Shown piece by piece: positions 3,696-20,486 of a stretch of DNA of 64,000 bases. This DNA comes from Verrucomicrobiota bacterium. GTDB taxonomy: Bacteria > Verrucomicrobiota > Verrucomicrobiia > Verrucomicrobiales > Akkermansiaceae. Location: assembly GCA_004293445.1 (NCBI GenBank), contig RDYP01000006.1, forward strand, positions 62,001 to 126,000. Reading direction: 5' to 3'. Every line of letters begins with the position of its first letter. Position 1 is the stretch's first letter. A program made the position numbers and the translations under genes. The notes below the pieces were generated by a model that ran no database searches, was not told the origin of the DNA, and worked only from the letters and a program-made list of their open reading frames with translations.

Positions 3696-3797
3696 GTCAT
3701 CATTCGCACGACTCTTCACATGTCACAAAATCGTCTCCTTCTCACGATTTCAAGGACAGCGGCACGCTTCGTAATCCCGAAGGCTCGCGCGCACCTC

Positions 3798-5429
3798 ATG
3801 AATCCCCACCACTTTCCCCTTCTCTTTCTGGCCTTCGGCTCACTCGCCCACGCCGCGGATCCCATCCCCATTCATCAGCAATTGCTGGAATCCCTGCGCA
3901 CTCACAAAGGCGTCCTGCCGCCCGTGCCCGACACTCATCCGATCAATACCCTCTCCAATCCCGAGGCCGTTGTTCCACCCCAGTGCTACACCCGCACCGA
4001 GATCCTCCACAACCCCTGCTACGTCTGCCATCAGGACCCCATCGAAGGCCGCGAAAACCGAATGGCCGATGCCGACCTCCAACAAGCCTACAGTTTCAGC
4101 GACATCGGCATGACCAATCAGTGGAAGAATCTCTTTGAAGATCGCCGCGAACGCGTCGCGAAAATCAGCGACGACGAAATCCTCAGCTACATCTCCGGCG
4201 ACAACTACTCCGAACTCCCCGCCCGCCTTCGCGAAGCCGGATTCAAGGGCTGGATCCCCGATCTCGCCAACCTCCACCTCGGCCATGCCGCCTTCGACGA
4301 ACAAGGCTTCGCCAAAGACGGCAGCCACTGGGTTGCCTTCAACTACAAACCCTTCCCCTCTACCTTTTGGCCAACCAACGGCTCCACGGACGACGTGATG
4401 ATCCGCTTGCCGGAAGCCTACCGCAGCACTGCCGACGGCAAGCCCTCCACCGACGTCTACAAGGCCAATCTCGCCATTCTCGAAGCCGCCATCAAAGGCC
4501 TGCCCGAAATTTCCTGCCTGCCCGTCGATGAAAACAATATCGGCCGCGACCTCGATGGCAATGGCACCCTCGCCACCGCCCACCACATCCGCGACACCCG
4601 ACGCTGGACCGGTGCGGCCGAGCCACTCCACCTCGAAAGCCACCTCTACCCCGAAGGCACCGAGTTCCTCCACACCGTCCGCTACGTCGGCGTCGGCAGC
4701 GACGACAGCATCGGAGTCTCCACCCGGATGAAGGAGGTCCGATACTCCAAAAAGGCCAAGGCTTACTCCAAGCCCATGTATGCCCGACGCTATGACCTCG
4801 AAGCCCAGGAAAAGGAAGCCGGCAACTTGCCCGCCTACCTCGACCTCGGCCACCACGGGCTCGACAACAACAACGGTTGGGCACTCCACGGCTTCATCGA
4901 AGACCGCCACGGCCGACTCCGTGCGATGACCTACGAAGAGAATTTTTCCTGCATGGGCTGCCACAACTCCGTCGGAGCCAGCATCGACAAAACCTTCAGC
5001 TTCCCGCGCAAACTCGACGGAGCCGAAGGCTGGGGCTACATCAACCTCAAGGGCATGCCCGACGCGCCCAACGTCGGCGAGACCGCAGGTGAAATCGCCA
5101 CCTACCTCGCCCGCGCCGGTGGAGGCAGCGAGTTCCGCAACAACGACGAAATGGCCGCGAAATGGTTCAAGCCCGACGGCAGCCTCGATCGCGAAAAAGT
5201 CTCCGCTGCCAAAGACGTTTACGAACTCATCACACCATCCCGCGAACGCGCCCTCGCCCTCAACAAGGCGTACCGCACCATCGTCGAAGATCAGGACTAC
5301 ATCCACGGCAAAGACGCCGTCCTCGTCCCACCCGTCAACGTCTACGACAAGATCGACAACGAAAACACCCCGACCCTCCCCCCCGAGCGCGTCTTCAAGT
5401 GGAACATCATCCTCGACTGGCCGGAATAA
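3798..5429 (+). CDS. Secreted dihaem cytochrome c-like protein of unknown function
   Basis: ATG at 3798 gives a 543-residue protein with a signal peptide (MNPHHFPLLFLAFGSLAHA, then ADP); an upstream in-frame ATG at 3720 would bury this signal. There are two haem c attachment motifs, CYVCH (residues 74-78) and CMGCH (385-389), more than 300 residues apart, so a periplasmic redox role is likely. Other visible features are a DENNIGRDLDGNGT segment (about 247-260) that could bind calcium and a conserved-looking GHHGLDNNNGWALHGF stretch before the second haem site. I do not recognise a named family. It follows the PhoX-like gene in the same direction but beyond that gene's terminator, so it is probably a separate transcript. 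It ends 12 bases before a repeat cluster. Confidence 0.75.
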   Translation: MNPHHFPLLFLAFGSLAHAADPIPIHQQLLESLRTHKGVLPPVPDTHPINTLSNPEAVVPPQCYTRTEILHNPCYVCHQDPIEGRENRMADADLQQAYSFSDIGMTNQWKNLFEDRRERVAKISDDEILSYISGDNYSELPARLREAGFKGWIPDLANLHLGHAAFDEQGFAKDGSHWVAFNYKPFPSTFWPTNGSTDDVMIRLPEAYRSTADGKPSTDVYKANLAILEAAIKGLPEISCLPVDENNIGRDLDGNGTLATAHHIRDTRRWTGAAEPLHLESHLYPEGTEFLHTVRYVGVGSDDSIGVSTRMKEVRYSKKAKAYSKPMYARRYDLEAQEKEAGNLPAYLDLGHHGLDNNNGWALHGFIEDRHGRLRAMTYEENFSCMGCHNSVGASIDKTFSFPRKLDGAEGWGYINLKGMPDAPNVGETAGEIATYLARAGGGSEFRNNDEMAAKWFKPDGSLDREKVSAAKDVYELITPSRERALALNKAYRTIVEDQDYIHGKDAVLVPPVNVYDKIDNENTPTLPPERVFKWNIILDWPE

Positions 5430-5441
5430 CAAAGCCTCTTC

Positions 5442-5760
5442 CTTGGACTGCGGCAGCCCGCTGCCGCTTTCAGCCCCGCAGCCTGCTGCGGGGAGCACAA
5501 GAAAAGCAAAATCCCCCAGCCCAATCCCCCCCAAAAAAAATCCAGCCCACCCCACCGGGCCAGCAGGCTGGCTCCAGCAAAGCCTCTTCCTTGGACTGCG
5601 GCAGCCTGCTGCCGCTTTCAACCCCGCAGCCCGCTGCGGGGAAGCACAAGAAAAGCAAAATCCCCAGCCCAAGCCCCCCCTCCCCCAAAAAAAACCGACC
5701 CACCCCACCGGGCCAGCAGGCTAGCTCCGGTAAAGCGGCAGCAGGCTGCCGCACTCCAAG
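5442..5760. repeat. Inverted-repeat element, subfamily 1, two tandem modules upstream of the RAYT gene
   Basis: Same architecture as the element at 1464: left-end modules start at 5442 and 5590, each with CTTGGACTGCGGCAGCC[C/T]GCTGCCGC, the CCCCGCAG..CTGCGGGG hairpin, the acaagaaaagc spacer and a GGGCCAGCAGGCT arm. The single right end GCGGCAGCAGGCTGCCGCA closes at 5760; its last part reads CTCCAAG instead of GTCCAAG. The next gene, a REP-associated transposase, starts 36 bases later. Confidence 0.9.
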
Positions 5761-5796
5761 ATCGACGTCCCTCACCGATTCACATATCAGGGAAAG

Positions 5797-6384
5797 ATGC
5801 CTGAAGATCTACCGGACGATGAAAAGTCCACCAAAGGCACCCGGGATTGGCCCCATGCCCCACCGCACCGACTCGGTCAAAGCGGCGTCTATTTCCTCAC
5901 CGCTCGAGCCGCCGAGGGCCGCGCACTGCTCGGAGACGATTCCATGAAGGACTGGTTCCAAGCGACGCTGTTCGAGATCTCCAACGACTTCGGATGGACG
6001 CTCGAAGCCTGGGCCATTCTATCCAATCACTATCATCTCGTCGGCCACAGCCCTCGAGGCCCGGATGGTGCGGAATCCCTGCGCGAAATGATCCGCAAGC
6101 TTCATAGCCTTACGACCCGAGAGCTCAATCGTCGCGAGAACCTTCCCGGTCGCACACGACTGTGGCAGAACTTCCGTGAAACCTGCCTGACCCACCAACC
6201 CAGCTACCTTGCGCGGCTGCATTACGTTCATCAGAATGCCGTCCACCACAAGCTCGTCATCCAGGGCTCGGACTGGAAATGGTGCAGTGCAGCTTCTTTC
6301 AAGAAAGCCGTCAGCCCGGCCTGGCTGAAGACCATCACCGGCTTTCCCTACGACGAAATCGCCGCCAAGGACGGCGACCTCTGA
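5797..6384 (+). CDS. REP-associated tyrosine transposase (RAYT; Y1/HUH superfamily, IS200/IS605-like TnpA)
   Basis: Single-strand DNA transposase-like enzyme of 195 aa. The HUH metal motif is H78-Y79-H80 within AILSNHYHLVGH, and the likely nucleophilic tyrosine is Y143 in YLARLHYVHQNAVHH, matching the family pattern Y-x-H-x-N-[PA]-V. The segment LWQNFRETCLT (122-132) takes the place of the usual W-[QE]-x-x-[FY] stretch. RAYTs are single-copy domesticated relatives of IS200/IS605 that act on REP palindromes. Here the gene lies between clusters of palindromic repeats (5442-5760 and 6424-6583), the expected REPtron-like arrangement. AGGGAAAG just before the ATG could serve as ribosome binding site. 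The frame is intact and the catalytic residues are present, so it is probably active. Confidence 0.88.
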   Translation: MPEDLPDDEKSTKGTRDWPHAPPHRLGQSGVYFLTARAAEGRALLGDDSMKDWFQATLFEISNDFGWTLEAWAILSNHYHLVGHSPRGPDGAESLREMIRKLHSLTTRELNRRENLPGRTRLWQNFRETCLTHQPSYLARLHYVHQNAVHHKLVIQGSDWKWCSAASFKKAVSPAWLKTITGFPYDEIAAKDGDL

Positions 6385-6423
6385 CTTGAACCGAGCAGCC
6401 CTCCTCGGACCTGCGGCATCAGG

Positions 6424-6583
6424 CTTGGACTGCGGCAGCCTGCTGCCGCTTTCAACCCCGCAGCCCGCTGCGGGGAGCACAAGAAAAGCCACCCCCAGCC
6501 CAAGCTCCCTCCAAATCCCCCGGCCCACCCCACCGGGCCAGCAGGCTAGCTCCGGAAAAGCGGCAGCAGGCTGCCGCAGTCCA
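6424..6583. repeat. Inverted-repeat element, subfamily 1, single complete unit
   Basis: The cleanest single copy, about 160 bp: CTTGGACTGCGGCAGCCTGCTGCCGC left end, CCCCGCAG..CTGCGGGG hairpin, acaagaaaagcc spacer with a C-rich tract, CCGGGCCAGCAGGCT arm, and GCGGCAGCAGGCTGCCGCAGTCCA right end. Three hairpins share a CAGCCTGCTG-type core. It lies between the RAYT stop (6384) and the stop codon of the HTH gene on the other strand (6587), so it may also serve as a bidirectional terminator. Confidence 0.9.
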
Positions 6584-6586
6584 CAC

Positions 6587-7000
6587 TCACTCATCCATCC
6601 CGTCGGCGACCTTGGTCTCCGGCAAGGGCTTGATCTTCGGATAAGCCCCCTGCCGCTTTTTCGCCAAAATCTCGTCCGCCTTCTCCAAAATCGCATCGCG
6701 GCAGAAGACCTTGAAACTCTCCGCCCCGGCGAGCCGACTCGCGACATCGGCCCGGTCAAATTGCTCGTCCGTCTCGAAGATCTGATTCCATGGCGGCACA
6801 TCCGGCCGAACCTCCTTCTGCCGCGCTGCTTCGAGCGCCAGAACCCGGGTGACTTCCTCCATGAATTCGATCGTCCGCTTCCCCTTCGGACCGAGATACT
6901 GACGGATCGTGTTCTCACTCAGCTTCAGCTGCTTCGCGAGCCACTTCCGGTCTTTCCCGATGGTCGCCAAAAGCCGCGGAATGTCCTGATGCTCAATCAC
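6587..7000 (-). CDS. Small helix-turn-helix protein, possible regulator of the adjacent restriction-like cluster
   Basis: 137 aa. Residues 8-40 (LLATIGKDRKWLAKQLKLSE then NTIRQYLGP) fit a lambda-repressor/XRE-like helix-turn-helix: a short helix, the WLAKQLKLSE turn region and a recognition helix NTIRQYL. The rest is charged and helical (FMEEVTRVLALEAARQKEVR, later DAILEKADEILAKKRQG) without a recognised domain. It is divergent from the SNF2 helicase gene at 7228, and the 227-bp gap between them contains several inverted repeats, a layout typical of an autoregulating repressor controlling a defence operon. This role is inferred from position only. The C-terminus ends three bases from a repeat element. 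Confidence 0.6.
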   Translation of the reverse strand: MIEHQDIPRLLATIGKDRKWLAKQLKLSENTIRQYLGPKGKRTIEFMEEVTRVLALEAARQKEVRPDVPPWNQIFETDEQFDRADVASRLAGAESFKVFCRDAILEKADEILAKKRQGAYPKIKPLPETKVADGMDE

Positions 7001-7045
7001 CCCGCCATGTTAGACCACGGTTTCGAAGTCGGGAGCCCTGAGTCA

Positions 7046-7076
7046 CTATTCGCTATCGAATAGACACTTCGTCTAT
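7046..7076. promoter_or_regulatory. Two overlapping inverted repeats in the divergent promoter region
   Basis: CTATTCG (7046-7052) pairs with CGAATAG (7057-7063) across a 4-base spacer. Overlapping it, ATAGAC (7060-7065) pairs with GTCTAT (7071-7076) across 5 bases. The two hairpins are mutually exclusive because they share bases 7060-7063. They lie between the divergent HTH and SNF2 genes; operator or attenuator use is possible but unproven. A further short hairpin, AGACA/TGTCT with a trailing T run, lies at 7185-7204 just before the SNF2 start. Confidence 0.4.
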
Positions 7077-7119
7077 CCGCTCTTGGTTTCGAAATCCCTA
7101 CTAACCAATCGAAAAGTAA

Positions 7120-7133
7120 TTCTTTATAAAGAA
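7120..7133. promoter_or_regulatory. Palindrome with TCTTTATAAAGA core upstream of the SNF2 gene
   Basis: TTCTTTATAAAGAA is a perfect 14-bp palindrome in the AT-rich gap between the divergent HTH and SNF2 genes. Its central 12 bases, TCTTTATAAAGA, recur exactly inside the 28-bp palindrome before the DUF4143 ATPase gene (13703-13714). A shared operator, perhaps for the neighbouring HTH protein, is an inference. Confidence 0.4.
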
Positions 7134-7227
7134 AGAATCATAGCCACGAACAGCTAGATCCATGAAACGCCAAGCTTGCCGATGAGACAGTTTTTGTCTT
7201 TTTTGGCTATCTAATTGCGATCACGGA

Positions 7228-10125
7228 ATGACCCCCTACCACGCGAAATACTACGCCCACGAGCTGACCCGGACGGGCGGGGACGGCGTGGACCGGCTCG
7301 GTAGGGCGCTCTTCGACGCCACCGTCACCCTCAATCCCCACCAGATCGAGGCCGCCCTTTTCGCCCTGCGTTCCCCGCTTTCGAAAGGCGTGCTCCTCGC
7401 CGACGAGGTGGGCCTCGGCAAGACCATCGAAGCCGGGCTCGTGCTCTGCCAATCCTGGGCCGAGGGCCGCCGCAGGCTCCTCATCATCACGCCCGCCTCC
7501 CTCCGGAAGCAATGGGCGCTGGAACTCCACGAAAAGTTCAACCTGCCTTCCATCATTCTCGACGCCCACGCCTGCCGTGAGCTGCGGAAGTCCGGCCACG
7601 CCTCGGCCTTCGAGCAGTCGCGGATCGTCATCACTTCCTACCACTACGCCGCGCGGATGGCGGCGGAAATCCAGCCCGTCCCTTGGGATCTCGTCGTGAT
7701 GGACGAGGCCCACAAGCTTCGTAACTGCCACCGCGAAAGCAACCGACTCGGCCAAGCGATCAAAAAGGCCACCGCCGACCGCAAGAAGATCCTCCTCACC
7801 GCCACCCCGCTCCAGAACTCGCTGGTCGAGCTCTTCGGCCTCGCCTCGCTCATCGACGAGCGCCTCTTCGGCGACCTCCCGACCTTCCGCACCCAGTTCG
7901 CCAATGCAGGCGGCGACCTGCCCGGCCTCCGCGAACGCCTCGCCGCCTTCTGCCACCGCACGCTCCGCAGCCAGGTGCTGGAGTATGTGAAATACACCGC
8001 CCGCCAGCTCCTCACCCAGCCCTTCACGCCCACCGAGGACGAACACACGCTCTACGAAACGGTCTCCCGCTACCTCCAGCGCGACGATTGCTACGCCCTC
8101 CCGCAGCGCCAGCGCCACCTGATCGTCCTGCTTGTTCGGAAGGTCCTTTCCTCCTCTCCACGCGCCCTCGCCGGGACGCTGGAAATGATGCGCGACCGCC
8201 TGCTCCGCATCCAGCAGGACGCGAAAAACCAGGCCGGTCTCTTCGACCAACTCCTCGCCGGCGACGAGCTCGATGCCGACCTGCTCGACGAACTCCTCGA
8301 AGACGCCGAGGACGCGGAAATCGATGACGACGAGGAAACTCCGGCCACCAACGAAACAGCCGCCGACGAGGAGATCGCCATCGATCCCGCGAAGCTGAAA
8401 AAGGAAATCGCCGAGCTCGACGACTACATCCGCTGGGCCCGCGGCATCGGCGTGGACACGAAGTCCCGCACCCTCCTCAAGGCGCTCGACATCGGCTTCG
8501 CCCAAATGGCCGGGATGAATCCGCCCGCCCCGCGCAAGGCGGTCATCTTCACCGAATCCCGCCGCACCCAGGCCTTCCTCAAGGACTTCCTCGAAGCCAA
8601 CGGCCACGCCGGAAAGATCGTCCTCTTCAACGGCTCCAACAACGATCCCGACTCGAAGCGCATCTACGAAAACTGGTGCGCCGCCAACCGCGACAGCGGC
8701 CGCATGACCGGCTCCCGGCCCGTCGATTCCCGCACCGCCCTCATCGATGCCTTCCGCGACTCCGCGGAGATCCTGATCGCCACCGAGGCCGCTGCCGAAG
8801 GCATCAACCTCCAGTTCTGCGCCCTCGTCATCAACTTCGACCTGCCCTGGAACCCGCAGCGCATCGAGCAGCGCATCGGCCGCTGCCACCGCTACGGCCA
8901 GCAGCACGACGTCGTCGTCATCAATTTCCTCAACCAGCGCAACGAGGCCGATCTCCGCGTCCACCAGTTGTTAGAGACCAAGTTCCACCTCTTCTCCACG
9001 CTCTTCGACAACTCCGACGACGTGCTCGGCCTCGTCGATGGCACCATCGATTTCGAACGCCGCGTGCTCGAGATCTATCAGCAGTGCCGCTCCGCCGATG
9101 AGATTAACGCCGCCTTCGACGCGCTGCAGAACGAACTGAAGGAACAGATCGAGTCGCGGATGAAGGAAACACGGAAGCTCCTGCTCGATCACTTCGACGA
9201 GGACGTGCATGAGCGGCTGCAAGTCCGCCTCGACGGCGCGAAACAACAGCTCGACCGCATCGGCCGCCTGTTCTGGGCGCTCACCCGCTTCGAACTGAAG
9301 GACCACGCCGCCTTCGATGACGAGGAACTCGCCTTCGACCTTCACCAGTCCCCCATCACCGCCGCCCTGCCCGGCCACTACCGGCTCGTCTCAAAGGGCC
9401 GCGCGAACATCCCCGGCGATTTCCTCTACCGGCTCAACCATCCGCTCGGCGAACACACCATCGCCCAGGGCAAAGGTCATCCCTGCCCGCTGGCGGAGCT
9501 GACCTTCGAAATCAGCGCGCATCCCACCAAGGTCAGCGTGGTCGAACAGCTCAAGGGCCGCTCCGGCTGGCTCACCCTCCAGCACCTGCGCATCGACTCG
9601 CTGGAACGCGAGGACCACCTGCTCTTCTCCGCCTTCGACGACGAAGGCCGCGACCTCGATCAGGAAACCTGCGAACGCCTCTTCTCCGTGGCTGGGACTT
9701 CCATTCCCAGTTCTTCCACCGAGCCACCCCCGCGCCTTGCCCAGGAAGCCGCGCGCCACGTCGCCGCCACGCTCAACCGCTCGCTGGAAACGAACCACCG
9801 CCACTTCCAACAAGCCCGCGACCAGCTCGACCGCTGGGCCGAGGACATGGAACTGGCTTCGCAGAAGCAGCTCGAAGACCTCAAGCGCCAGATCCGCGAT
9901 CTCCAGCGCCGCTCCCGCCAAGCTCCCACGCTTCAGGAGGAAAAGGCGATGCAGGACCAGATCCTCAAGCTCGAACAACAGAAGCGCCGCCAGCGCCAGC
10001 GCATCTTCGAGATCGAGGATGAGATCGAGGCGAAGCGCAAAACCCTCGTCGCCGCCCTCGAAGCGCGGCTCCAACAGAAAACCCTAACAACCCCGCTCTT
10101 CACGGTCAGGTGGAGCGTCCTCTGA
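7228..10125 (+). CDS. SNF2-family DNA helicase/translocase of a defence-type cluster
   Basis: 965 aa. Superfamily 2 SNF2/RapA-like ATPase: ADEVGLGKTIEAG (Walker A, about 58-70), ITPASLRKQW (motif Ia), VVMDEAHKLRN (motif II, D159-E-A-H), LLTATPLQNS (motif III), then after a long acidic insert the second lobe with EAAAEGINLQFC and QRIGRCHRYGQ (548-558, motif VI). The C-terminal 120 residues are a predicted coiled coil rich in E/Q/R. Such proteins translocate on duplex DNA; relatives occur as DISARM DrmD and in other restriction-linked loci. It is the first gene of a same-strand series with a methyltransferase and a Res-like nuclease, though a repeat element now separates it from the methyltransferase. 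No nuclease motif of its own was found. Confidence 0.85.
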   Translation: MTPYHAKYYAHELTRTGGDGVDRLGRALFDATVTLNPHQIEAALFALRSPLSKGVLLADEVGLGKTIEAGLVLCQSWAEGRRRLLIITPASLRKQWALELHEKFNLPSIILDAHACRELRKSGHASAFEQSRIVITSYHYAARMAAEIQPVPWDLVVMDEAHKLRNCHRESNRLGQAIKKATADRKKILLTATPLQNSLVELFGLASLIDERLFGDLPTFRTQFANAGGDLPGLRERLAAFCHRTLRSQVLEYVKYTARQLLTQPFTPTEDEHTLYETVSRYLQRDDCYALPQRQRHLIVLLVRKVLSSSPRALAGTLEMMRDRLLRIQQDAKNQAGLFDQLLAGDELDADLLDELLEDAEDAEIDDDEETPATNETAADEEIAIDPAKLKKEIAELDDYIRWARGIGVDTKSRTLLKALDIGFAQMAGMNPPAPRKAVIFTESRRTQAFLKDFLEANGHAGKIVLFNGSNNDPDSKRIYENWCAANRDSGRMTGSRPVDSRTALIDAFRDSAEILIATEAAAEGINLQFCALVINFDLPWNPQRIEQRIGRCHRYGQQHDVVVINFLNQRNEADLRVHQLLETKFHLFSTLFDNSDDVLGLVDGTIDFERRVLEIYQQCRSADEINAAFDALQNELKEQIESRMKETRKLLLDHFDEDVHERLQVRLDGAKQQLDRIGRLFWALTRFELKDHAAFDDEELAFDLHQSPITAALPGHYRLVSKGRANIPGDFLYRLNHPLGEHTIAQGKGHPCPLAELTFEISAHPTKVSVVEQLKGRSGWLTLQHLRIDSLEREDHLLFSAFDDEGRDLDQETCERLFSVAGTSIPSSSTEPPPRLAQEAARHVAATLNRSLETNHRHFQQARDQLDRWAEDMELASQKQLEDLKRQIRDLQRRSRQAPTLQEEKAMQDQILKLEQQKRRQRQRIFEIEDEIEAKRKTLVAALEARLQQKTLTTPLFTVRWSVL

Positions 10126-10162
10126 ACGCCGGATGAACTGCAGTTGCATCACCGGCGAAGCC

Positions 10163-10324
10163 TTTGGACTGCGGCAGCCTGCTGCCGCTTTCAGCCCCGC
10201 AGCCTGCTGCGGGGAGCCAAGGAACCGCGAAAGGACAAGCCCGCGGGGCACTCTTTCACCTCTCATCCACCCCGGGCCAGCAGGCTGGCTCCGGAAAAGC
10301 GGCAGCAGGCTGCCGCAGTCCAAG
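10163..10324. repeat. Inverted-repeat element, subfamily 2, between helicase and methyltransferase genes
   Basis: It has the same ends and hairpins as the other elements (TTTGGACTGCGGCAGCC... and ...GCTGCCGCAGTCCAAG, plus the CCCCGCAG..CTGCGGGG hairpin), but a different middle: ggggagccaaggaaccgcga leading to ctctcatccaccccgggcca. This spacer type is shared with the copies at 13371 and 18843 and not with those near the RAYT gene. It fills most of the 250-bp gap between the two genes. Confidence 0.9.
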
Positions 10325-10375
10325 GAACCACGCGGACTGATCTCTCACTGAAGCCCTCCTTTCACCCTTTTTCCC

Positions 10376-13360
<2,985 letters not shown>

Positions 13361-13370
13361 GGGTCGGTGA

Positions 13371-13533
13371 CTTTGGACTGCGGCAGCCTGCTGCCGCTTT
13401 GAACCCCGCAGCCTGCTGCGGGGAGCGGATGGGGAGCGAAAGAATCGCCCTCTGTTCCCTCATTTCTCCTTCCATCCACCCCGGGCCAGCAGGCTGGCAC
13501 CGGAAAAGCGGCAGCAGGCTGCCGCAGTCCAAG
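13371..13533. repeat. Inverted-repeat element, subfamily 2, downstream of the methyltransferase gene
   Basis: Begins CTTTGGACTGCGGCAGCC 10 bases after the methyltransferase stop and ends GCCGCAGTCCAAG at 13533. Middle part: ggggagcggatggggagcga through tccatccaccccgggccagc, like the copy at 18843. Both terminal arms and the CCCCGCAG..CTGCGGGG hairpin are intact. Confidence 0.9.
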
Positions 13534-13547
13534 TCTTTCTGAAGCCC

Positions 13548-13648
13548 ATGCCCGCCCGCACCCGCACCACCCCGCCACCGCTGACTTCGGCAAAAAGCTG
13601 GTCCTCCAGCATTGAGTGTTCTCCCTGCTGGAGGCGCTGGATCTTCCC
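13548..13648 (+). pseudogene. Broken duplicate of the first ~100 bases of the Res-like gene
   Basis: This stretch aligns with the 5' end of the intact nuclease gene at 15203. Both start ATGCCCGCCCGC, both contain AAGCTGGTCCT and TGTTCTCCCTGCTGGAGGCGC, and by hand I count about 15 mismatches and one gap over about 96 columns. The copy has lost one base around 13584 (frameshift) and carries TGA at 13612-13614 where the intact gene has the tryptophan codon TGG, so it cannot be translated as Res. Similarity fades after about 13645. It is what remains of an earlier start of res, or of a duplication made when the ATPase gene arrived. Confidence 0.82.
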
Positions 13649-13694
13649 GCATCGATTTGGCTTCAAATCTGAGCTAATTCAGCAAAAAGAGCTT

Positions 13695-13722
13695 GATTAA
13701 GATCTTTATAAAGATCTTAATC
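13695..13722. promoter_or_regulatory. Perfect 28-bp palindrome upstream of the DUF4143 ATPase gene
   Basis: Left arm GATTAAGATCTTTA (13695-13708) is followed directly by its exact reverse complement (13709-13722), with no loop. It lies 13 bases before the ATG of the ATPase gene, where a bound dimer would block initiation. The core TCTTTATAAAGA is shared with the site at 7120-7133. No T run follows, so a terminator is unlikely. Confidence 0.55.
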
Positions 13723-13735
13723 GATCAAAAGAAGC

Positions 13736-15187
13736 ATGAATCTGCCCAAAAACGAATTGATTGCCGTCCTCCAGGAATTCAATCCTTGGTGGAACGGTCG
13801 TGCCTCCACCGATTTGCCGGATTGGGAGCGTTCCGCCATGGGACCGCTCCGGGATTGGATGGCGGACACCGAATCGAGGCGGGCGCTGGTGCTCAGCGGC
13901 GCACGGCAGACGGGGAAGACCACCCTGCTGCGGCAGGCGGTCCGGCATCTTCTGGAAGACCGGCCCGCGGCGGGGAACATCCTCTACGCCACCTTCGACC
14001 ATCCCATCCTCAAGCTGGCGGGACTGGAACGCACGCTGGCGGCCTGGGAGGAGATGTTTCCGCCAGAGCCGGACGAGCCGCAGTGGTTGTTTCTGGATGA
14101 GATCCAGTATGTGGCGGAATGGCAGACCTGGCTGAAGCATCAGGTGGATTTCAAGCGGGGCCGGAGAATCGTGGTCACCGGATCCGCTAGCCCGCTGGGA
14201 GCGGCCAAAGCGGAATCCGGAGTGGGGCGCTGGCAGACCCTGCCGCTGGCCACCCTGTCGTTCGGGGAGTTCCTCAAGCTGCGCAACATCGATCCCGGGC
14301 CGGTGCCTTTGGTCAAATCGCTGAAGCAATGCTTCGACTGGAGCGAGGGGGACTTCGCGCGCACGGCGGGCCTCGCGAAAGGGCTGACGCCGCATTTCCA
14401 TGACTACCTGCTGCGCGGCGGCTTTCCGGAGCCGGCGATGGTGTCCGATCTGTCGCGCTGCCAGCGGCTGCTGCGGGAGGACATCGTGGACAAGGTGCTC
14501 AAGCGCGACATGACCGCCCTTTACGGCGTGCGCCGCGTGCTGGAGGTGGAGAAGATTTTCCTCTATCTCTGTTATCACGACGGCGGGATCGTGGATGTGG
14601 CGGCGCTGTCTCGCGAACTGGATGGCGTGAACCGGAACTCGGTGAACAATTTCCTCGATCTCTTCGAATCCACGCATCTGGTCTATCGCCTGCGTCCGCA
14701 CGGCTACGGCAAGGAAGTGCTGCGCGGCAAGCCGAAGCTCTATCTGGCGGATGCGGCCTTGCCCGGCTCGGTGCTGCTGCTCGGCAGGAAGCTGCTGGAA
14801 CGGGCGGACCGCTTGGGCGCGGCGGTGGAGACGGCCTTTTTCAAGCATGTCTTCACCCGTTACTACGCCGACCAGCCGTCCTTCACCTACTGGCGGGACA
14901 AGGCCAACAAGGATCTGGAAGTGGACCTGATCGCCTCCATCGGCGAGCGTTTGGTGCCTTTTGAAGTGAAGTATCAGGATGCCGCCCCGGAGATGTCGAA
15001 ACTCAAGGGCCTCCGCCATTTCCTGGAAGACCAGAAGTTGGAACAGGGCTATGTCATCACCCGGCGCTGGGAAGACTTCGGCATCCGGCAGGTCCCCTCC
15101 GCCAAGACGGGCCGCGAGCGAGTCCTGCTCGATTCACGCATCCTCTCCATCCCGGCTCCGCTCGCCTGCTACTGGCTGTCTTCCTGA
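13736..15187 (+). CDS. AAA_14/DUF4143 ATP-binding protein inserted in the restriction cluster
   Basis: 483 aa. N-terminal AAA-type ATPase domain with Walker A GARQTGKTTLL (about 54-64) and Walker B WLFLDEIQYV (about 116-125), followed by sensor VVTGSASPL; the C-terminal half fits DUF4143 (SFGEFLKLRN, DIVDKVLKRDM, TYWRDKANKDLEVDLIAS with a D-x-E-V-D core, VPFEVKYQD). DUF4143 ATPases are widespread, usually solitary, horizontally mobile proteins of unknown function; the C-terminal domain resembles restriction-endonuclease folds and might be a decayed or active nuclease. The gene sits between methyltransferase and nuclease genes, where type III systems normally have none. It is flanked by an intact and a broken copy of the res 5' end, so I read it as a later insertion. 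It ends 15 bases before the intact res ATG. Confidence 0.88.
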   Translation: MNLPKNELIAVLQEFNPWWNGRASTDLPDWERSAMGPLRDWMADTESRRALVLSGARQTGKTTLLRQAVRHLLEDRPAAGNILYATFDHPILKLAGLERTLAAWEEMFPPEPDEPQWLFLDEIQYVAEWQTWLKHQVDFKRGRRIVVTGSASPLGAAKAESGVGRWQTLPLATLSFGEFLKLRNIDPGPVPLVKSLKQCFDWSEGDFARTAGLAKGLTPHFHDYLLRGGFPEPAMVSDLSRCQRLLREDIVDKVLKRDMTALYGVRRVLEVEKIFLYLCYHDGGIVDVAALSRELDGVNRNSVNNFLDLFESTHLVYRLRPHGYGKEVLRGKPKLYLADAALPGSVLLLGRKLLERADRLGAAVETAFFKHVFTRYYADQPSFTYWRDKANKDLEVDLIASIGERLVPFEVKYQDAAPEMSKLKGLRHFLEDQKLEQGYVITRRWEDFGIRQVPSAKTGRERVLLDSRILSIPAPLACYWLSS

Positions 15188-15202
15188 AATTTCTCCGAAC
15201 CC

Positions 15203-18200
15203 ATGCCCGCCCGCGTCCGCTCCACCGTCCCACCGCTTCCCTTCGACAAGAAGCTGGTCCTTCAGCAATGGGTGTTCTCCCTGCTGGAGGCGCGGGACCT
15301 TTACGACCTTTGCGACAGTGAATTCCGCCACCCGGACGCCGAGAAGTGGGATACCGAAAACGTCACGGAGTTCCATCGCCTGCTGGTGCAAAAAACCATC
15401 GAGCGCGAGCACCTGCCGCACGCGCTGCTGCGGGCCTTCGACGAAAACATCGTCCGCCACACCATGGCGATCAACGGACGCCGCAAGGAGCCGATCCGCT
15501 GGAAATACTACCAATACATCGCGCTGCTCTTCACCGAGATCTACCTGCATTGGTATTTCCACAAGCCCGCCGCCTTGCTGGCCGCGCTCAACGCCCGCAT
15601 CGCCACCTTCAACGCCGGGCTGGAGAACACGGAGCACCTGCTGCCCTGCACCGAGGCCGACTTGAAGAAGCTCTGCTTCTGGCAGGCCACCGGCAGCGGC
15701 AAGACGCTGCAGATGCACGTCAACATCCTGCAATACCTCGACCACCTCGCCCGCGCGGGGCGCAGGCACGAGCTGAACAAGATCATCCTGCTCACGCCAA
15801 AGGAAGGACTGAGCCTCCAGCACCTCAAGGAATTCGCCGACTCAGGGATCGACGCCGAGCTGTTCGAAAAGGAAGGCACGGGTTCCATGTTCTCCGGCCA
15901 GACCGTGGAGATCATCGACGTCAACAAGCTCGCCGACGAGTCGAAGGACAAGACCGTCGCGGTCGATTGCTTCGAAGGAAACAACCTCGTGCTGGTGGAC
16001 GAGGGGCACCGCGGCTCGTCGGGCGAGGAATGGATGAAGCGCCGCGAGAAGCTTTGCCGCGATGGTTTCTGCTTCGAATACTCCGCCACCTTCGGCCAGG
16101 CCGTGAAGGCCGCGACGCCGGTGAAGGGCGACGACGGGATCAAGCGCAACCTGCTGGAGCAGAACTATGCCCGCTGGATCCTCTTCGACTACAGCTACCG
16201 CTTCTTCCACGGCGACGGCTACGGCAAGCATTACCGCATCCTCAACCTGAGAGAACAACGCGACGACGACCAGCGGCAACTCTACCTGGTGGCCGGACTG
16301 CTTTCCTTCTACCAGCAGCTCCGCGTCTGGGCCGACCATCGCGACGAGTTCTCCGTGTTCAACGTCGAGCGCCCGCTGTGGGTGTTCTTCGGCGCGAAGG
16401 TGAACGCCGGGGAAATCTCCGACATCGTTGATGTGCTCCTGTTCTTCGCGAGATTCGTCCGCAACCGGGCCGAATCGATCCGCCAGTTGGACCTGCTGCT
16501 CGATGGCCGTGACGGCATGGTCGATCGCAAGGGCCGTCCACTCTTCTCCACCGGATTTCCCTACCTCAAGTCGATCGGCCAGAACGGAGAGATGGCCTTC
16601 GACGGCATCCTCTCGGCGTTTTTCAACTCGCCGACCGGCGGCAAGCTCCACGTGCGCGATCTCAAGTCCGCGGCGGGCGAGCTCTCGCTTTCCCTCGGAA
16701 ATGCCGAGCCCTTCGGCGTGATCAATGTCGGCGATGAGAAGACCTTGCACGGCCTATGTGAAAAGCATCCGGAGCTGCTGGCCACTTCCGATCAGGAATT
16801 CGGCGGATCCTTGTTCCGCCAACTCTCCCACACTGCCTCCCGCATCCACCTGCTGTTAGGCTCGAAGAAATTCACCGAGGGCTGGAACAGTTGGCGCGTC
16901 TCCGCCATCGGCCTGATGAACATGGGCAAGAAGGAAGGATCGGACGTGATCCAGCTCTTCGGCCGCGGCGTGCGCCTCAAGGGCTGGGACATGACGCTCA
17001 AGCGCTCGTCGGCGTTGAAGGACCTCAACCTCGGCATCATGCAGGAAGCCACCGAGGCGCAGCGGCGCTTTCTCCACCTCGTCGAGACGCTCGATGTCTT
17101 CGGCGTGAAGGCCGACTATATGGCCAGCTTCCGCGAGTATCTCGAAACGGAGGGCGTGAACCCCGAGCCGGACCAGGAGGAGATCATCGTGCCCATTCTA
17201 CCGACTCTGACTGATCTTCCTTCGAAGAAGCTCAAGATCGTGCGCGTGCCGGAGCATCTGAACTTCAAGCGCGACGCGCCGAAGCCAAACCTTGAACCCG
17301 ACCGTGACACTTTCCTGCGTTCACCGGTTAGGGTCGATTGGTATCCGCGCATCGAAGCCCTGAGTGCAGTCGAGTCCCGGCGGGGTCTGGATGCCATCTC
17401 GAAAGACACCGGCCTTCTGGAAGCGCGGCATCTTGCGTTTCTCGACTACGAGGCGCTGCATCTCGGCTTGCAGCGCTTCAAGACCGAGCGCGGGTTTTCC
17501 AATCTGCGGCTGGACCGCGCCACGATCCCGCAATTGCTCGCGGATCCCCATTGGTATGAGCTTTCCATCCCCAGGCAGGAGCTGGAGAGCGGCCGCTTCG
17601 AAAGCGTGCGCACCTGGCAGCAGATCGCCGAAGCGCTGTTGAAGGGGTATTGCGAACGCCTTTACAAGAACCGCAAGCAGGGTTGGGAAAGCGAGCACGC
17701 GGAGGCCTACGACCTCGGTCCCGGCGATCCGAACTTCGAGCAGGAATACCGCTTTCTCGTGCAGGCCGAGAACGAACTCGTCGGGCAGATCAAGGATCTG
17801 GCCAAGCAGGTGGTGAAACCGGGCTTCAAGAAATGCTCGTTCGCCCAAGTGAACGCGCTGAGCTGGGACGGACACCTCTACTCACCGCTCGTCCACATCG
17901 CTGGAAACTCGCTCGTTACTGTCAGCCCGGTCAGTCTCAACGAGGGCGAGTGGCAGTTCATCAACGACCTCAGAAGCCACCACGAAGTGCACCCCGGCTT
18001 CTTCGAAGGAAAGGAGCTTTTCGTCCTCCGCAACAAGAGCAAGAAGGGCATCGGTTTCTTCGAGGCTGGGAATTTCTATCCCGACTTCATCGTCTGGCTC
18101 CTCGTCGGGAAGCAGCAGTATCTCAGCTTCGTCGATCCCAAAGGCCTGCGGAACACCCAGGGCTTCGACGACCCGAAGATCGCCTTCGCGGAGAAGATCA

Positions 18201-18418
18201 AGGCCATCGAAGCCCGCTTGTCGAAAGCCACGCCCGGGCTGGTGCTGAATTCCTTCATCCTATCGACCACCTCATTCCGCCAGATCCACTGGTGGGACAA
18301 GCTCAAGACACCGGAGGACTTCGCTGCGGCCCATGTGCTGCTGCAGAAGGACGAACCTGAAAGCTACATCGGGAAGATGTTCGAGCTGATTCTCGCGTCG
18401 GTCGACAAGGGCGAGTAA
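15203..18418 (+). CDS. Type III restriction enzyme Res-like helicase-nuclease
   Basis: 1071 aa. Superfamily 2 helicase core: CFWQATGSGKTLQMH (Walker A, about 157-171), NLVLVDEGHRGSSGEEW (motif II as DEGH instead of DEAH/DECH), FEYSATFGQA (motif III), ENTEHLL before the core, and DVIQLFGRGVRLKGW (motif VI). A PD-(D/E)xK-type nuclease site lies near the C-terminus: D961 in FYPDFIVW and D978-P-K980 in YLSFVDPKG. Type III Res subunits cut DNA in complex with Mod, powered by ATP; here the partner would be the methyltransferase at 10376. The first ~35 codons exist a second time as a broken copy at 13548. No frameshift was noticed, so it looks functional. Alternative: a stand-alone helicase-nuclease used with the SNF2 protein. 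Confidence 0.87.
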   Translation: MPARVRSTVPPLPFDKKLVLQQWVFSLLEARDLYDLCDSEFRHPDAEKWDTENVTEFHRLLVQKTIEREHLPHALLRAFDENIVRHTMAINGRRKEPIRWKYYQYIALLFTEIYLHWYFHKPAALLAALNARIATFNAGLENTEHLLPCTEADLKKLCFWQATGSGKTLQMHVNILQYLDHLARAGRRHELNKIILLTPKEGLSLQHLKEFADSGIDAELFEKEGTGSMFSGQTVEIIDVNKLADESKDKTVAVDCFEGNNLVLVDEGHRGSSGEEWMKRREKLCRDGFCFEYSATFGQAVKAATPVKGDDGIKRNLLEQNYARWILFDYSYRFFHGDGYGKHYRILNLREQRDDDQRQLYLVAGLLSFYQQLRVWADHRDEFSVFNVERPLWVFFGAKVNAGEISDIVDVLLFFARFVRNRAESIRQLDLLLDGRDGMVDRKGRPLFSTGFPYLKSIGQNGEMAFDGILSAFFNSPTGGKLHVRDLKSAAGELSLSLGNAEPFGVINVGDEKTLHGLCEKHPELLATSDQEFGGSLFRQLSHTASRIHLLLGSKKFTEGWNSWRVSAIGLMNMGKKEGSDVIQLFGRGVRLKGWDMTLKRSSALKDLNLGIMQEATEAQRRFLHLVETLDVFGVKADYMASFREYLETEGVNPEPDQEEIIVPILPTLTDLPSKKLKIVRVPEHLNFKRDAPKPNLEPDRDTFLRSPVRVDWYPRIEALSAVESRRGLDAISKDTGLLEARHLAFLDYEALHLGLQRFKTERGFSNLRLDRATIPQLLADPHWYELSIPRQELESGRFESVRTWQQIAEALLKGYCERLYKNRKQGWESEHAEAYDLGPGDPNFEQEYRFLVQAENELVGQIKDLAKQVVKPGFKKCSFAQVNALSWDGHLYSPLVHIAGNSLVTVSPVSLNEGEWQFINDLRSHHEVHPGFFEGKELFVLRNKSKKGIGFFEAGNFYPDFIVWLLVGKQQYLSFVDPKGLRNTQGFDDPKIAFAEKIKAIEARLSKATPGLVLNSFILSTTSFRQIHWWDKLKTPEDFAAAHVLLQKDEPESYIGKMFELILASVDKGE

Positions 18419-18817: not shown

Positions 18818-18842
18818 TGGATCTGGTGAAGTGAATCTCTTC

Positions 18843-18975
18843 CTTGGACTGCGGCAGCCTGCTGCCGCTTTGGACCCCGCAGCCTGCTGCGGGGAGCGGA
18901 TGGGAAACGAAAGAATCGTCCCAAGGTCCCCATTTTCTCCACCCACCCCGGAGGAGCAGGCTACCGCAGTCCAAG
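18843..18975. repeat. Inverted-repeat element, subfamily 2, with shortened right arm
   Basis: Left end CTTGGACTGCGGCAGCCTGCTGCCGC and the CCCCGCAG..CTGCGGGG hairpin are complete. The right side has lost part of its arm (ggaggagcaggctaccgcagtccaag), making this copy about 30 bp shorter than the copy at 13371, whose spacer (gagcggatgggaaacgaaagaatcg) it otherwise resembles. It marks the downstream boundary of the accessory island. The whole gap 18419-19061 holds the two remnants above, this repeat and nothing else I can support. Confidence 0.88.
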
Positions 18976-19061: not shown

Positions 19062-20486
19062 ATGAAAATCCTCAGCCTCTCCACTGCCCTCATGGCCGCC
19101 GCCAGCGCCGAAACCGCTCTGACGATCTACAACCAGAACCTCGCGGTGGTGCGCGAGACCCTCCCGCTCGATCTCAAGCCGGGCGAGAATCCGGTGAGCT
19201 TCGACCGCGCCACCGCCCAGGTGATGCCCGACTCCGTGGTGCTGCGCGATCCTGCCGGCAAGGCCGCCTTTTCGATCCTCGAGCAGAGCTACCGCAACGA
19301 CCCGGTCAGCCGCTCGCTGCTGTTGAGCCATTTTGAAGGCCAGGAGATCGAGTTCCGCAGCGTCTATCCCGACGGCAAGGTCGAGCTGCAGGCCGGCAAG
19401 ATCGTCCGCTCCGGCCACGTTCCCGGCGGCCAGCCGCAGGACCCGATCATCGAGGTCGACGGCAAGCTGCGCTTCCAACTCCCCGGCGAGCCGCTCTTCC
19501 CCGCGCTCGGCGACGGCTCGATCCTCCGCCCGACCCTCGGCTGGCAGATCCGCAGCGACGCGGCGGCGAAGTTCGACGCCCAGCTGTCCTACCTCAGCAA
19601 CGGCTTCAACTGGGAGGCCGACTACAACCTGGTCGCGCCGGAGAAGGGCGAGACCGTGACTCTGACCGGCTGGGTCACCGTGAACAACCAAAGCGGCACC
19701 GCTTTCCAGGACGCCAAGGTCAAGCTGGTGGCCGGCGAGGTGAACATCATCGAACCAAGCCACCCCAACGTAGGCATGATGCGCTCGAAAATGATGGCGA
19801 TGGAAGCCGACGCCGCGCCGGCGGTGCAGGAGAAGGCCTTCGACGACTTCCACCTCTACACTCTACAGCGTCCGCTGACGATCCGCGACAAGGAGACGAA
19901 GCAGGTCGAGTTCCTACGCGCCGCGGCGGTCAAGGCGTCCAAGCGCTACGTCTACGATCCGGCCGCGATGCGCTTCTTCGGCGGTGGCGGCCCGCAGACC
20001 CAGCCGATCCAAGGGATGGAGTTCCCGAAGGACGTGGCGATCTACTGGGAGTTCAAGAACGACGAGTCGAACGGCCTGGGCGTCCCGCTGCCCGCCGGCC
20101 GCGTCCGCTTTTACCGCTCCGACGACCAGGACGGGAACCTCGAGTTCGTCGGCGAGAACGACATCGATCACACCCCGCGCAACGAGGAGGTCTCGATCTA
20201 CACCGGCAATGCCTTCGACCTGGTCGGCGAACGGAAGATCGTGAACTTCGAGCGCGACGACCGCGCGGAGTGGATGAAGGAAAGCATCGAGATCACCGTG
20301 AAGAACCGCTCCAAGGAGCCGAAGGAGATCGTGGTCCGCGAGCACCTCTGGCGCTGGCTGAACTGGAAGATCGAGAACGCCTCGATGGAGTCGGTGAAGA
20401 AGGACGCGCAGAAGATCGAGTTCACCGTGAAGCTCGCCCCGGACGAGGAGAAGAAGGTGACCTACACCGCGCACTACAGCTGGTAG
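19062..20486 (+). CDS. DUF4139 domain-containing secreted protein
   Basis: 474 aa. A short signal-like N-terminus (MKILSLSTALMAAASA) is followed by the family opening LTIYNQNLAVVRETLPLDL and a segment GKLRFQLPGEPLFPALGDGS. The central LGWQIRSD..AQLSYLSNGFNWEADYNLV is the most recognisable DUF4139 motif (LsYl..gl.W.a.Y.l). The C-terminus YEIT-like ITVKNRSKEPKEIVVREHLW ends KKVTYTAHYSW as in the family. Function is unknown; members are secreted beta-rich proteins. The stop codon touches the first of three tandem 114-bp repeats. An in-frame ATG at 19092 would be a poorer start since it removes the signal. Confidence 0.85.
   Translation: MKILSLSTALMAAASAETALTIYNQNLAVVRETLPLDLKPGENPVSFDRATAQVMPDSVVLRDPAGKAAFSILEQSYRNDPVSRSLLLSHFEGQEIEFRSVYPDGKVELQAGKIVRSGHVPGGQPQDPIIEVDGKLRFQLPGEPLFPALGDGSILRPTLGWQIRSDAAAKFDAQLSYLSNGFNWEADYNLVAPEKGETVTLTGWVTVNNQSGTAFQDAKVKLVAGEVNIIEPSHPNVGMMRSKMMAMEADAAPAVQEKAFDDFHLYTLQRPLTIRDKETKQVEFLRAAAVKASKRYVYDPAAMRFFGGGGPQTQPIQGMEFPKDVAIYWEFKNDESNGLGVPLPAGRVRFYRSDDQDGNLEFVGENDIDHTPRNEEVSIYTGNAFDLVGERKIVNFERDDRAEWMKESIEITVKNRSKEPKEIVVREHLWRWLNWKIENASMESVKKDAQKIEFTVKLAPDEEKKVTYTAHYSW

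What the first reader, a model, noticed from the sequence alone, without database searches (positions are those of the whole stretch)
7228..18418. Four-gene restriction-like cluster: SNF2 helicase, Mod-like methyltransferase, DUF4143 ATPase, Res-like helicase-nuclease
Two large SF2 motors of different type (SNF2 and type III Res) flank a roughly 1000-residue beta-class methyltransferase and an AAA/DUF4143 protein, all on one strand, with a divergent HTH gene upstream. Classical type III systems have only mod and res. DISARM has a SNF2 protein and a methylase but also DrmA/B/C, which are absent; BREX needs PglZ and BrxC/BrxL, also absent. The combination could be a variant or undescribed anti-phage system. 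The gene order and catalytic motifs are seen in the sequence; the defence role is inferred.
Basis: partly seen in the sequence, partly recalled or inferred. Interest (0 to 1): 0.65.

Follow-up and report, generated by a model that had tools for sequence, protein, structure and literature searches.

The report
SNF2-equipped type III restriction cassette
This is a bacterial DNA-restriction system in which the usual methylase and cutter genes travel with a third motor-protein gene and carry an inserted back-up defence gene; the core is a known kind, but the motor as a frequent partner and the gene-swapping slots look under-described.

Summary
The four genes are real and intact. Mod and Res are a long-form type III restriction-modification pair (PADLOC MTase_III 705 bits, REase_III 676 bits). 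SNF2 is a recurrent partner: it lies at 26 of 42 distinct informative long Mod-Res loci, and beside a short-type Mod in 15 other loci. The SNF2 tree splits along these types with one exception. SNF2 is optional: 16 of the 42 lack it, 3 of these carrying a UvrD-nuclease instead. It fails the two DISARM tests run.

DUF4143 is not core. It is catalogued candidate PDC-S01, in a slot between mod and res that elsewhere holds other defence genes (AAA_21+DUF4276, AbiE, Schlafen, GmrSD). A decayed duplicate of the res 5' end just upstream looks like an insertion footprint. A 12-bp palindrome found only twice in the 3.35-Mb genome lies upstream of SNF2 and of DUF4143 (0 of 20,000 shuffles share one), suggesting shared control. 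The DUF4143 model resembles STAND/NLR ATPases and ends in a PD-(D/E)XK-like motif, fitting a guard nuclease.

Reading: a type III system with an accessory dsDNA motor and a swappable back-up effector. New variant of a known kind; function untested.

The parts
6587..7000 (-). small divergent gene (137 aa), helix-turn-helix-like by eye; candidate local regulator
   Evidence: ORF; no Pfam family; homologue 62% identical at the same place in G215
7087..7098 (.). 12-bp element TTTCGAAATCCC upstream of SNF2; the genome's only other copy lies upstream of its second SNF2 gene
   Evidence: 44 of 5000 shuffled pairs of the two upstream stretches share some 12-mer
7121..7132 (.). operator-like palindrome TCTTTATAAAGA, copy 1, between the HTH-like gene and SNF2
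   Evidence: only two copies in the 3.35-Mb genome; expected 0.01 in the window with 1 mismatch allowed; not found upstream of SNF2 in G215
7228..10125 (+). SNF2/RapA-DrmD-like dsDNA translocase, 965 aa
   Evidence: Pfam SNF2-rel_dom 111.6 bits; PADLOC DrmD PDLC02619 644.4 bits; NCBIfam DrmD_b 652.6 bits against a cut-off of 950; best solved relative RapA
10164..10331 (.). REP-like repeat in the SNF2-mod gap
   Evidence: repeat family D1; 88-89% identical repeats in G215
10376..13360 (+). long Mod, beta-class N6-adenine-type methyltransferase, 994 aa; DPPY at residues 489-492, FAGSGTT at 740-746; N-terminal extension of about 450 residues
   Evidence: PADLOC MTase_III PDLC03646 704.9 bits; motifs invariant in 18 sequences; closest solved structures are Mods 6k0w, 4zcf, 7dsu
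13373..13535 (.). REP-like repeat after mod
   Evidence: repeat family D1
13545..13645 (+). decayed duplicate of the first ~100 bp of res (stop and frameshift): insertion footprint
   Evidence: local alignment with 15200-15301, score 143 against shuffle maximum 39
13695..13722 (.). 28-bp perfect palindrome holding TCTTTATAAAGA copy 2 (13703-13714), 13 bp before the DUF4143 start
13736..15187 (+). embedded cargo: AAA_14-DUF4143 protein (PDC-S01), STAND-like ATPase with a C-terminal PD-(D/E)XK-like motif, 483 aa
   Evidence: Pfam AAA_14 97 bits, DUF4143 100 bits; PDC-S01 150.5 bits; G60 K61, D121 E122, E365, D397, E410, K412 invariant in 11 sequences and, where the row reaches that far, in 13 others incl. 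the window; model pLDDT 80.6, Z 16 to archaeal ATPases and plant NLRs
15203..18418 (+). Res, SF2 helicase-like restriction subunit with C-terminal nuclease motif, 1071 aa
   Evidence: PADLOC REase_III PDLC03654 675.9 bits; G164, G166-T168, DEGH 266-269, SAT 294-296, FGRG 586-589 and PD 960-961 invariant in 18 sequences; D978 kept in 15 of 18 (E in 3), K980 in 14 of 18 (H in 4)

Best explanation
A type III-like restriction-modification system with an accessory SNF2 motor and one swappable back-up gene. Inferred from family: Mod methylates one strand of a short asymmetric site and, with Res, forms a complex that protects host DNA and cuts unmodified incoming DNA after ATP-driven switching or sliding by Res. 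Shown: SNF2 is a recurrent, co-diversifying neighbour of Mod-Res. Inferred: SNF2, a RapA/DrmD-type double-stranded-DNA translocase, works with them, most likely by moving along invading DNA and stripping bound proteins or polymerase so that Mod-Res can slide and find its sites; other systems manage without it or have a UvrD-nuclease in its place. Shown: DUF4143 sits in a slot filled by other defence genes elsewhere, and a duplicated res 5' end marks a likely insertion. Inferred: it is an NLR-like ATPase-nuclease guard, switched on when the restriction system is blocked or phage replicates, damaging nucleic acid to stop the infection. A palindrome shared by the SNF2 and DUF4143 upstream regions suggests one regulator, possibly the divergent HTH-like protein.
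For: Type III core: MTase_III 705 and REase_III 676 bits, kept motifs, type III Mods as closest folds. SNF2 partnership: 26 of 42 distinct informative long loci (with L025 counted); 18 of 22 SNF2 places in 288 related genomes have a mod gene at the locus, one a relic; 8 of 8 plasmid records opened for SNF2 have a mod, one disrupted. SNF2 tree: 18 long-type rows plus one short-type and one row without mod fall on one side of a 100/100 branch; the label needs 2 changes against 11.1 shuffled. Distance correlation over 18 loci: SNF2-Mod 0.44, SNF2-Res 0.56, 0 of 5000 permutations as high. Cargo: 22 of the 42 clusters in which I saw both SNF2 and mod (27 long, 15 short; a different set from the 42 loci above) carry a recognised gene between core genes. 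Footprint. Palindrome: 2 copies genome-wide, both here; 0 of 20,000 shuffled pairs share a 12-bp palindrome. DUF4143 model Z 16 to archaeal ATPases/NLRs; PDC-S01 described as ATPase + PD-(D/E)XK found by embedding (PMC12988326, passages).
Against: No activity was tested. 16 of 42 informative long loci lack SNF2 (6 of 8 Bacillota, the haloarchaea opened, and others), so SNF2 is not needed by the pair. SNF2-Mod correlation is weaker than Mod-Res (0.82), and host relatedness was not removed. In G215, SNF2 (88% DNA identity) is intact while mod and res are fragments. Two SNF2 places (G086, second copy in G172) show no mod. The palindrome was noticed before it was tested and was not found upstream of SNF2 in the relatives checked. 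The guard role of DUF4143 is by analogy; in the 7 other genomes of the phylum sample that carry a relative no core gene lies in the fetched stretch. The duplicate-end footprint was seen at 2 of 30 junctions tested. The DUF4143 nuclease fold rests on motif and paper, not on a fold match here; Foldseek's own top rows for the model had low TM scores (0.23-0.36) to AAA+ proteins of many kinds. In Res relatives the D and K of the last nuclease motif vary.
Confidence: 0.62

Rival explanations
1. An obligate four-protein defence system in which SNF2, Mod, DUF4143 and Res act as one machine.
For: All four are on one strand and DUF4143 ends 15 bp before res; a palindrome is shared by the SNF2 and DUF4143 upstream regions; a divergent AAA+DUF4143 gene lies upstream of long mod-res in two haloarchaeal plasmids (L032, L089).
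Against: DUF4143 is present in 1 of 26 distinct SNF2-bearing long loci and the slot holds unrelated genes elsewhere; insertion footprint; DUF4143 relatives in 7 other genomes of the phylum sample are not beside core genes.
Confidence: 0.1
2. A plain two-gene type III system; SNF2 is itself another piece of cargo or an independent neighbour drawn in by defence-island clustering.
For: 16 of 42 informative long loci lack SNF2, 3 of them with a UvrD-nuclease in its place; SNF2 is intact where mod-res has decayed in G215; in Conchiformibius SNF2 follows res instead of preceding mod.
Against: SNF2 is the commonest partner seen, usually upstream of mod, splits by Mod-Res type in the tree and tracks Mod/Res distances.
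Confidence: 0.23
3. A DISARM variant: SNF2 is DrmD and Mod is its methylase.
For: Best named hits of SNF2 are DrmD models.
Against: 652.6 bits against the DrmD_b cut-off of 950; no MZB domain (taken to stand for DrmB) in the whole genome while the same search rings in 8 of 14 control genomes; the 25 best of Mod's 35 PADLOC hits are all type III or II methylases; a Res subunit is present.
Confidence: 0.03
4. A decaying relic: the repeats and insert have broken the operon and it no longer restricts.
For: REP-like repeats in two intergenic gaps of 250 and 375 bp; a near relative in G215 is fragmented.
Against: All four frames are open and the catalytic motifs are kept.
Confidence: 0.12

Closest known systems
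Type III restriction-modification (EcoP15I, EcoPI class)
   Same: Mod and Res as partner genes; beta-class methylase; SF2 helicase-like Res with C-terminal nuclease motif; PADLOC type III models match strongly
   Different: Mod is ~1000 aa with a ~450-residue N-terminal extension (EcoP15I Mod chain is 644 aa); an SNF2 gene is a frequent third member; a 2013 type III review has no occurrence of 'SNF2' (PMC3874151, word search)
SWI2/SNF2-methylase dyad of polyvalent proteins (PMC5512222)
   Same: That paper pairs a SWI2/SNF2 helicase with a DNA methylase and likens the mechanism to type III Mod-Res, with translocation along dsDNA without strand separation (passage)
   Different: There the passage concerns domains of mobile-element polyvalent proteins; here SNF2 is a separate gene beside a complete Mod and Res
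DISARM DrmD (SNF2 helicase)
   Same: Closest named SNF2 family, aligned over residues 27-676
   Different: Below family cut-off, C-terminal ~290 residues unaligned, no MZB/DrmB-type domain found in the genome
PrrC/EcoprrI and PARIS guard modules
   Same: A back-up effector linked to restriction systems; PrrC lies inside a type I locus (PMC12707154, passages); cargo in relatives scores on these models: AAA_21 of L037 on AriA 123 bits, AAA_13 of L078 on PrrC 45 bits, though HEC-01A and PDC-S06 are their best
   Different: Here the host is a type III-like core and the effector is DUF4143/PDC-S01; triggering by restriction inhibition is not shown
PDC-S01 (guilt-by-embedding candidate; Payne et al. 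2024 preprint, not held here)
   Same: The DUF4143 protein is a member by profile (150.5 bits)
CoCoNuT/McrBC neighbourhoods (PMC11090510)
   Same: Figure legends list both SWI2/SNF2 ATPases and Mod/Res among neighbourhood genes (passages)
   Different: The passages do not describe an SNF2-Mod-Res unit; figures were not seen
RapA / SNF2 remodellers
   Same: Best solved relatives of the SNF2 motor core
   Different: Matches cover the motor core only; genomic partner here is Mod-Res

Membership tests
Type III restriction-modification | Mod subunit of type III family with DPPY and FxGxG motifs | tested here: met
   MTase_III 704.9 bits; DPPY and FAGSGTT columns invariant in 18 sequences
Type III restriction-modification | Res subunit with SF2 helicase motifs and C-terminal PD-(D/E)XK motif, at the same locus as Mod | tested here: met
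   REase_III 675.9 bits; motifs; res follows mod with DUF4143 between
Type III restriction-modification | Cuts DNA with two inversely oriented unmodified sites; methylates one strand | not testable with these tools
   needs biochemistry or long-read methylation data
DISARM | DrmD-family SNF2 above family cut-off | tested here: not met
   652.6 bits against 950
DISARM | DrmB (DUF1998/MZB) present | tested here: not met
   no MZB domain in the genome (97.4% complete); same search positive in 8 of 14 controls; that MZB stands for DrmB is recalled
DISARM | DrmA and DrmC present | not tested
   not searched genome-wide by their own models
BREX | PglZ and BrxC/BrxL at the locus | tested here: inconclusive
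   no PglZ on the window's contig; two PglZ domains elsewhere, on C6 and C9; BrxC/BrxL not searched
PDC-S01 | AAA_14 ATPase with DUF4143, profile match | tested here: met
STAND/NLR-type NTPase (fold class of the DUF4143 N-terminal part) | P-loop domain followed by helical and winged-helix domains | tested here: inconclusive
   Z about 16 over residues ~12-358 to 2qen, 2fna, RPP1 and 14-15.5 to CED-4; low sequence identity, one model; Foldseek TM scores low

The most novel reading that the evidence does not exclude
SNF2 is a true third subunit of a widespread class of type III restriction systems, spanning two Mod-Res lineages, and this class is a docking platform: fixed slots between its core genes take up interchangeable guard effectors, here an NLR-like ATPase-nuclease brought under the cassette's own operator, so that one inhibited restriction complex triggers whichever suicide module is docked.
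Probability: 0.3. Interest if true: 0.78.

Novelty: new variant of a known kind. Interest (0 to 1): 0.52.

Why it matters
If SNF2 is a working partner of Mod-Res, textbook two-gene type III restriction is only part of the story, and annotation that labels this SNF2 'DrmD' misleads. The slots give a ready list of candidate guard genes, including PDC-S01, reported as the fourth most common defence across prokaryotes yet unvalidated (PMC12988326, passages), in a setting where a trigger (the inhibited restriction core) can be tested directly.

Tried and rejected
Chance adjacency: rejected by recurrence and expectation. DISARM: rejected on the two features tested. Obligate four-gene system: rejected as main reading. 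Insertion footprint as a general feature of the slots: 2 of 30 junctions tested, the window and L075, so it supports this locus, not the rule. Operator shared with relatives: the palindrome TCTTTATAAAGA was not seen upstream of SNF2 in G215, the Akkermansia MAG, the second cluster of this genome, Klebsiella, G235, G132, G051 or G348 (for the Akkermansia MAG my start may be internal, so its stretch may be misplaced). Site history: in G251 (same genus) CysDes-PhoX-g569 and DUF4139-TAG are colinear with the window but ~4.9 kb of other genes lies between, so no clean empty site was found; in G277 only the DUF4139 side matched.

Literature: ten searches of the held open-access library showed no paper that I could see joining a separate SNF2 gene with type III Mod-Res; I saw passages only, of PMC12255303, PMC12988326, PMC13092281, PMC10853773, PMC7251935, PMC12707154, PMC3874151, PMC13356809, PMC11090510, PMC8418041, PMC5467263 and PMC5512222. 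PMC5704250 and PMC10542128 were seen as listings only. Against novelty: PMC5512222 already likens an SNF2-methylase dyad to type III, and PMC11090510 legends list SNF2 and Mod/Res. The key preprint (Payne 2024) and PMC3632139 are not held, so absence from print is weakly tested.

Mod N-terminal extension: the model has mean pLDDT 65 and the Foldseek rows shown were methyltransferases, so nothing is learnt about the extension. No nuclease structure appeared among the listed rows for the DUF4143 C-terminal part, which is not evidence against. The viral structure library gave mostly clamp-loader-like ATPases in the 50 rows shown.

Rows dropped: of 25 plasmid records covering at least 80% of Res, neighbourhoods of 11 were opened; the 14 not opened are 11 enteric records at the same 39.2% identity as L026, a second Priestia and two haloarchaea. 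For the 42 informative loci I dropped L034 (near copy of L026), L197 (copy of L182) and L023 (same contig as L041), and counted L025 as SNF2-positive although one search scored it 'none', its SNF2 lying at the locus edge. Loci with under 3 kb upstream of mod and no SNF2 were left out as truncated (3 Verrucomicrobiota, 9 Bacillota, 10 viral, 1 genome contig). G132, whose SNF2 and res lie on two contigs, is among the truncated but is counted once among the SNF2-mod clusters with cargo, on the assumption that the contigs join. The 420-aa reverse ORF in L036, the 372-aa reverse ORF in L069, unnamed ORFs in L027 and L086 and short ORFs in L186 were not counted as recognised cargo.

On checking, I corrected: junctions tested 30 (not 29), loci lacking SNF2 16 (not 13), palindrome 13 bp before DUF4143, Res final motif not invariant.

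Full report
What is there. Four open frames lie on one strand at the stated places, with a divergent 137-aa ORF upstream. Pfam gives SNF2-rel_dom/Helicase_C, N6_N4_Mtase, AAA_14+DUF4143 and ResIII; the small ORF matches nothing. PADLOC gives DrmD (644 bits), MTase_III (705), PDC-S01 (150) and REase_III (676). NCBIfam's DrmD_b aligns residues 27-676 of SNF2 at 652.6 bits, under its cut-off of 950. The window is G000:C7:62001-126000 of a 3.35-Mb assembly. I infer Verrucomicrobiota, because a same-family genome (G215) has a 65,100-bp contig that matches a record titled Verrucomicrobiaceae bacterium.

Mod-Res is a long-form type III pair. In 18-sequence alignments Mod DPPY 489-492 and FAGSGTT 740-746 are invariant, as are most residues of Res GSGKT, DEGH, SAT and FGRG and PD 960-961; the last nuclease motif of Res (D978, K980) is kept in 15 and 14 of 18. 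The closest solved structures to Mod are type III Mods. Res-long occurs in 13 of 288 genomes of the phylum, 17 of 299 of a second sample centred on Alkalithermobacter, taken as Bacillota, 24 viral-collection loci and 221 plasmid records, of which 25 cover at least 80% of Res.

SNF2 is a recurrent partner. In one search, SNF2 lies at 9 of 10 informative Verrucomicrobiota loci (one a relic), 2 of 8 Bacillota, 9 of 13 distinct viral-collection loci, 5 of 10 distinct plasmid loci opened (L025 counted) and the Akkermansia MAG: 26 of 42. Of the other 16, three have a UvrD-like helicase in its place (L030, L033, L189; Pfam shows UvrD plus PD-(D/E)XK in the first two; L189 by BLAST) and 13 have neither. 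In reverse, SNF2 has 22 places in 20 of 288 genomes: 11 with long mod (one a relic, G215), 7 with short mod, 2 near contig ends, 2 with no mod found. Eight plasmid records opened for SNF2 all have a mod or methyltransferase gene downstream; in L087 it is broken up among insertion elements. By chance about 0.005 SNF2 genes would be expected near 13 Res genes.

SNF2 and Mod-Res share history. In an unrooted 37-row tree the 18 long-type rows, one short-type row (Salmonella plasmid, with an insertion sequence after SNF2) and one row without mod lie on one side of a 100/100 branch; the label needs 2 changes against 11.1 in shuffles. Over 18 loci with all three genes, distance correlations are SNF2-Mod 0.44, SNF2-Res 0.56, Mod-Res 0.82, each with 0 of 5000 permutations as high. 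Host relatedness was not removed.

The slots hold defence genes. Between core genes relatives carry AAA_21+DUF4276 (L021 twice, L037, L069; AAA+DUF4276 by annotation in L029 and L087), AAA_21 alone (L039), AbiEi/AbiEii (L038), Schlafen AlbA_2 (L035), GmrSD (L043, L076, L084; DUF262 by annotation in L088), Abi_2 (L076, L077; Abi by annotation in L081), DUF2130 with AAA_15 or AAA_13 (L072, L079), AAA_13 (L078), DUF6119 (L075), AIPR and VapC by annotation (L082), HerA (L084), a PLD-type nuclease domain (L085) and RecD-like helicases (L025, L127). My count from these calls: a recognised gene between core genes in 22 of 42 clusters with SNF2 and mod, 9 of 27 long and 13 of 15 short. PADLOC names some of them HEC-01A/B, PDC-S06 and PDC-S68; of 10 proteins given to that call, DUF6119, DUF2130 and the 527-aa protein of L086 had no hit. 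The genome's own second cluster, G000:C12, is SNF2-AAA_21-DUF4276-short Mod-Res.

DUF4143 is an insert here. The first ~100 bp of res recur, with a stop and frameshift, at 13545-13645 just upstream of the DUF4143 stretch (score 143, shuffle maximum 39). The same sort of footprint appears at L075 and at none of the other 28 junctions tested. Haloarchaeal plasmids L032 and L089 have a divergent AAA+DUF4143 protein upstream of long mod (Pfam on the L089 gene; both flagged). DUF4143 relatives occur in 7 other genomes of the phylum sample; none of the fetched stretches holds a core gene by BLAST, so the protein also lives alone.

Shared elements. TCTTTATAAAGA occurs twice in the whole genome, at 7121-7132 upstream of SNF2 and 13703-13714 upstream of DUF4143. 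It is the only repeated one of 21 distinct 12-bp perfect palindromes in the window, and 0 of 20,000 dinucleotide shuffles of the two stretches share a 12-bp palindrome. I noticed it before testing it, and it was not seen upstream of SNF2 in the relatives checked, so it is a strong local hint of common control, not proof. A second element, TTTCGAAATCCC, also occurs only twice in the genome: at 7087-7098 and upstream of the second SNF2 gene on C12; 44 of 5000 shuffled pairs share some 12-mer, so this is weaker.

What DUF4143 may be. Its AlphaFold2 model (pLDDT 80.6) matches archaeal ATPases 2qen and 2fna, plant NLRs and CED-4 at Z about 14-16 over residues ~12-358, although Foldseek's own TM scores were low. 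E365, D397, E410 and K412 are invariant in 11 sequences, the pattern of a PD-(D/E)XK site. A 2026 survey describes PDC-S01 as an ATPase fused to a PD-(D/E)XK member, found by embedding, the fourth most common defence across prokaryotes, with validation pending for most such candidates (PMC12988326, passages). A guard role, as for PrrC in its type I locus (PMC12707154, passages), is inference.

What SNF2 may do. A paper on polyvalent proteins notes that SWI2/SNF2 ATPases move along dsDNA without opening it and likens an SNF2-methylase pair to type III Mod-Res (PMC5512222, passage). That is the nearest mechanistic precedent I found; the roadblock-clearing step proposed here is inference.

Verdict. 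It is a type III-like restriction cassette with a frequent SNF2 partner and an embedded PDC-S01 gene. Novelty lies in the SNF2 partnership across two Mod-Res lineages and the cargo slots; the passages I saw do not describe it, but the most relevant preprint could not be read.

Noticed in passing
G000:C12 (L069) 2427-12699: The same genome carries a second SNF2 cassette with short Mod and Res and an AAA_21+DUF4276 pair between SNF2 and mod.
   Followed up: partly
L041 5976-11091 (G215): SNF2 (88% DNA identity) is intact while mod and res are reduced to rearranged fragments, with the mod 3' end lying after the res 3' end.
   Followed up: partly
window 7087-7098 and G000:C12:72814-72825: TTTCGAAATCCC occurs only twice in the genome, upstream of each of its two SNF2 genes.
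   Followed up: partly
window 1463-6583, 10164-10331, 13373-13535, 18842-18962 and RAYT gene 5797-6384: REP-like repeats lie in gaps of and around the cassette beside a REP-associated tyrosine transposase (just under its cut-off); similar repeats and an 83% identical transposase lie beside the G215 relic.
   Followed up: partly
window 20486-20827: Three near-identical 114-bp tandem repeats after the DUF4139 gene.
   Followed up: no
window 42087-42122: A 36-bp perfect palindrome, the longest found in the window.
   Followed up: no
L026 res gene, 8324-8621 of the query L026:3563-13315: A 298-bp piece of the Klebsiella plasmid res gene recurs at 100% identity in 18 of the 20 E. coli records listed (170 records matched, 167 at 99% or more), annotated there as a DUF1158 protein.
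   Followed up: no
L030 4096-7038, L033 4172-6955, L189 4148-6880: A UvrD-type helicase takes the SNF2 position upstream of long Mod-Res in Priestia, Athalassotoga and a viral-collection contig.
   Followed up: partly
L152 6214-11000 (G251): In a same-genus genome the same flanking genes enclose other genes (phospholipase-D-like, histone-deacetylase-like and acetyl-CoA-hydrolase-like by eye), so the site is variable.
   Followed up: partly
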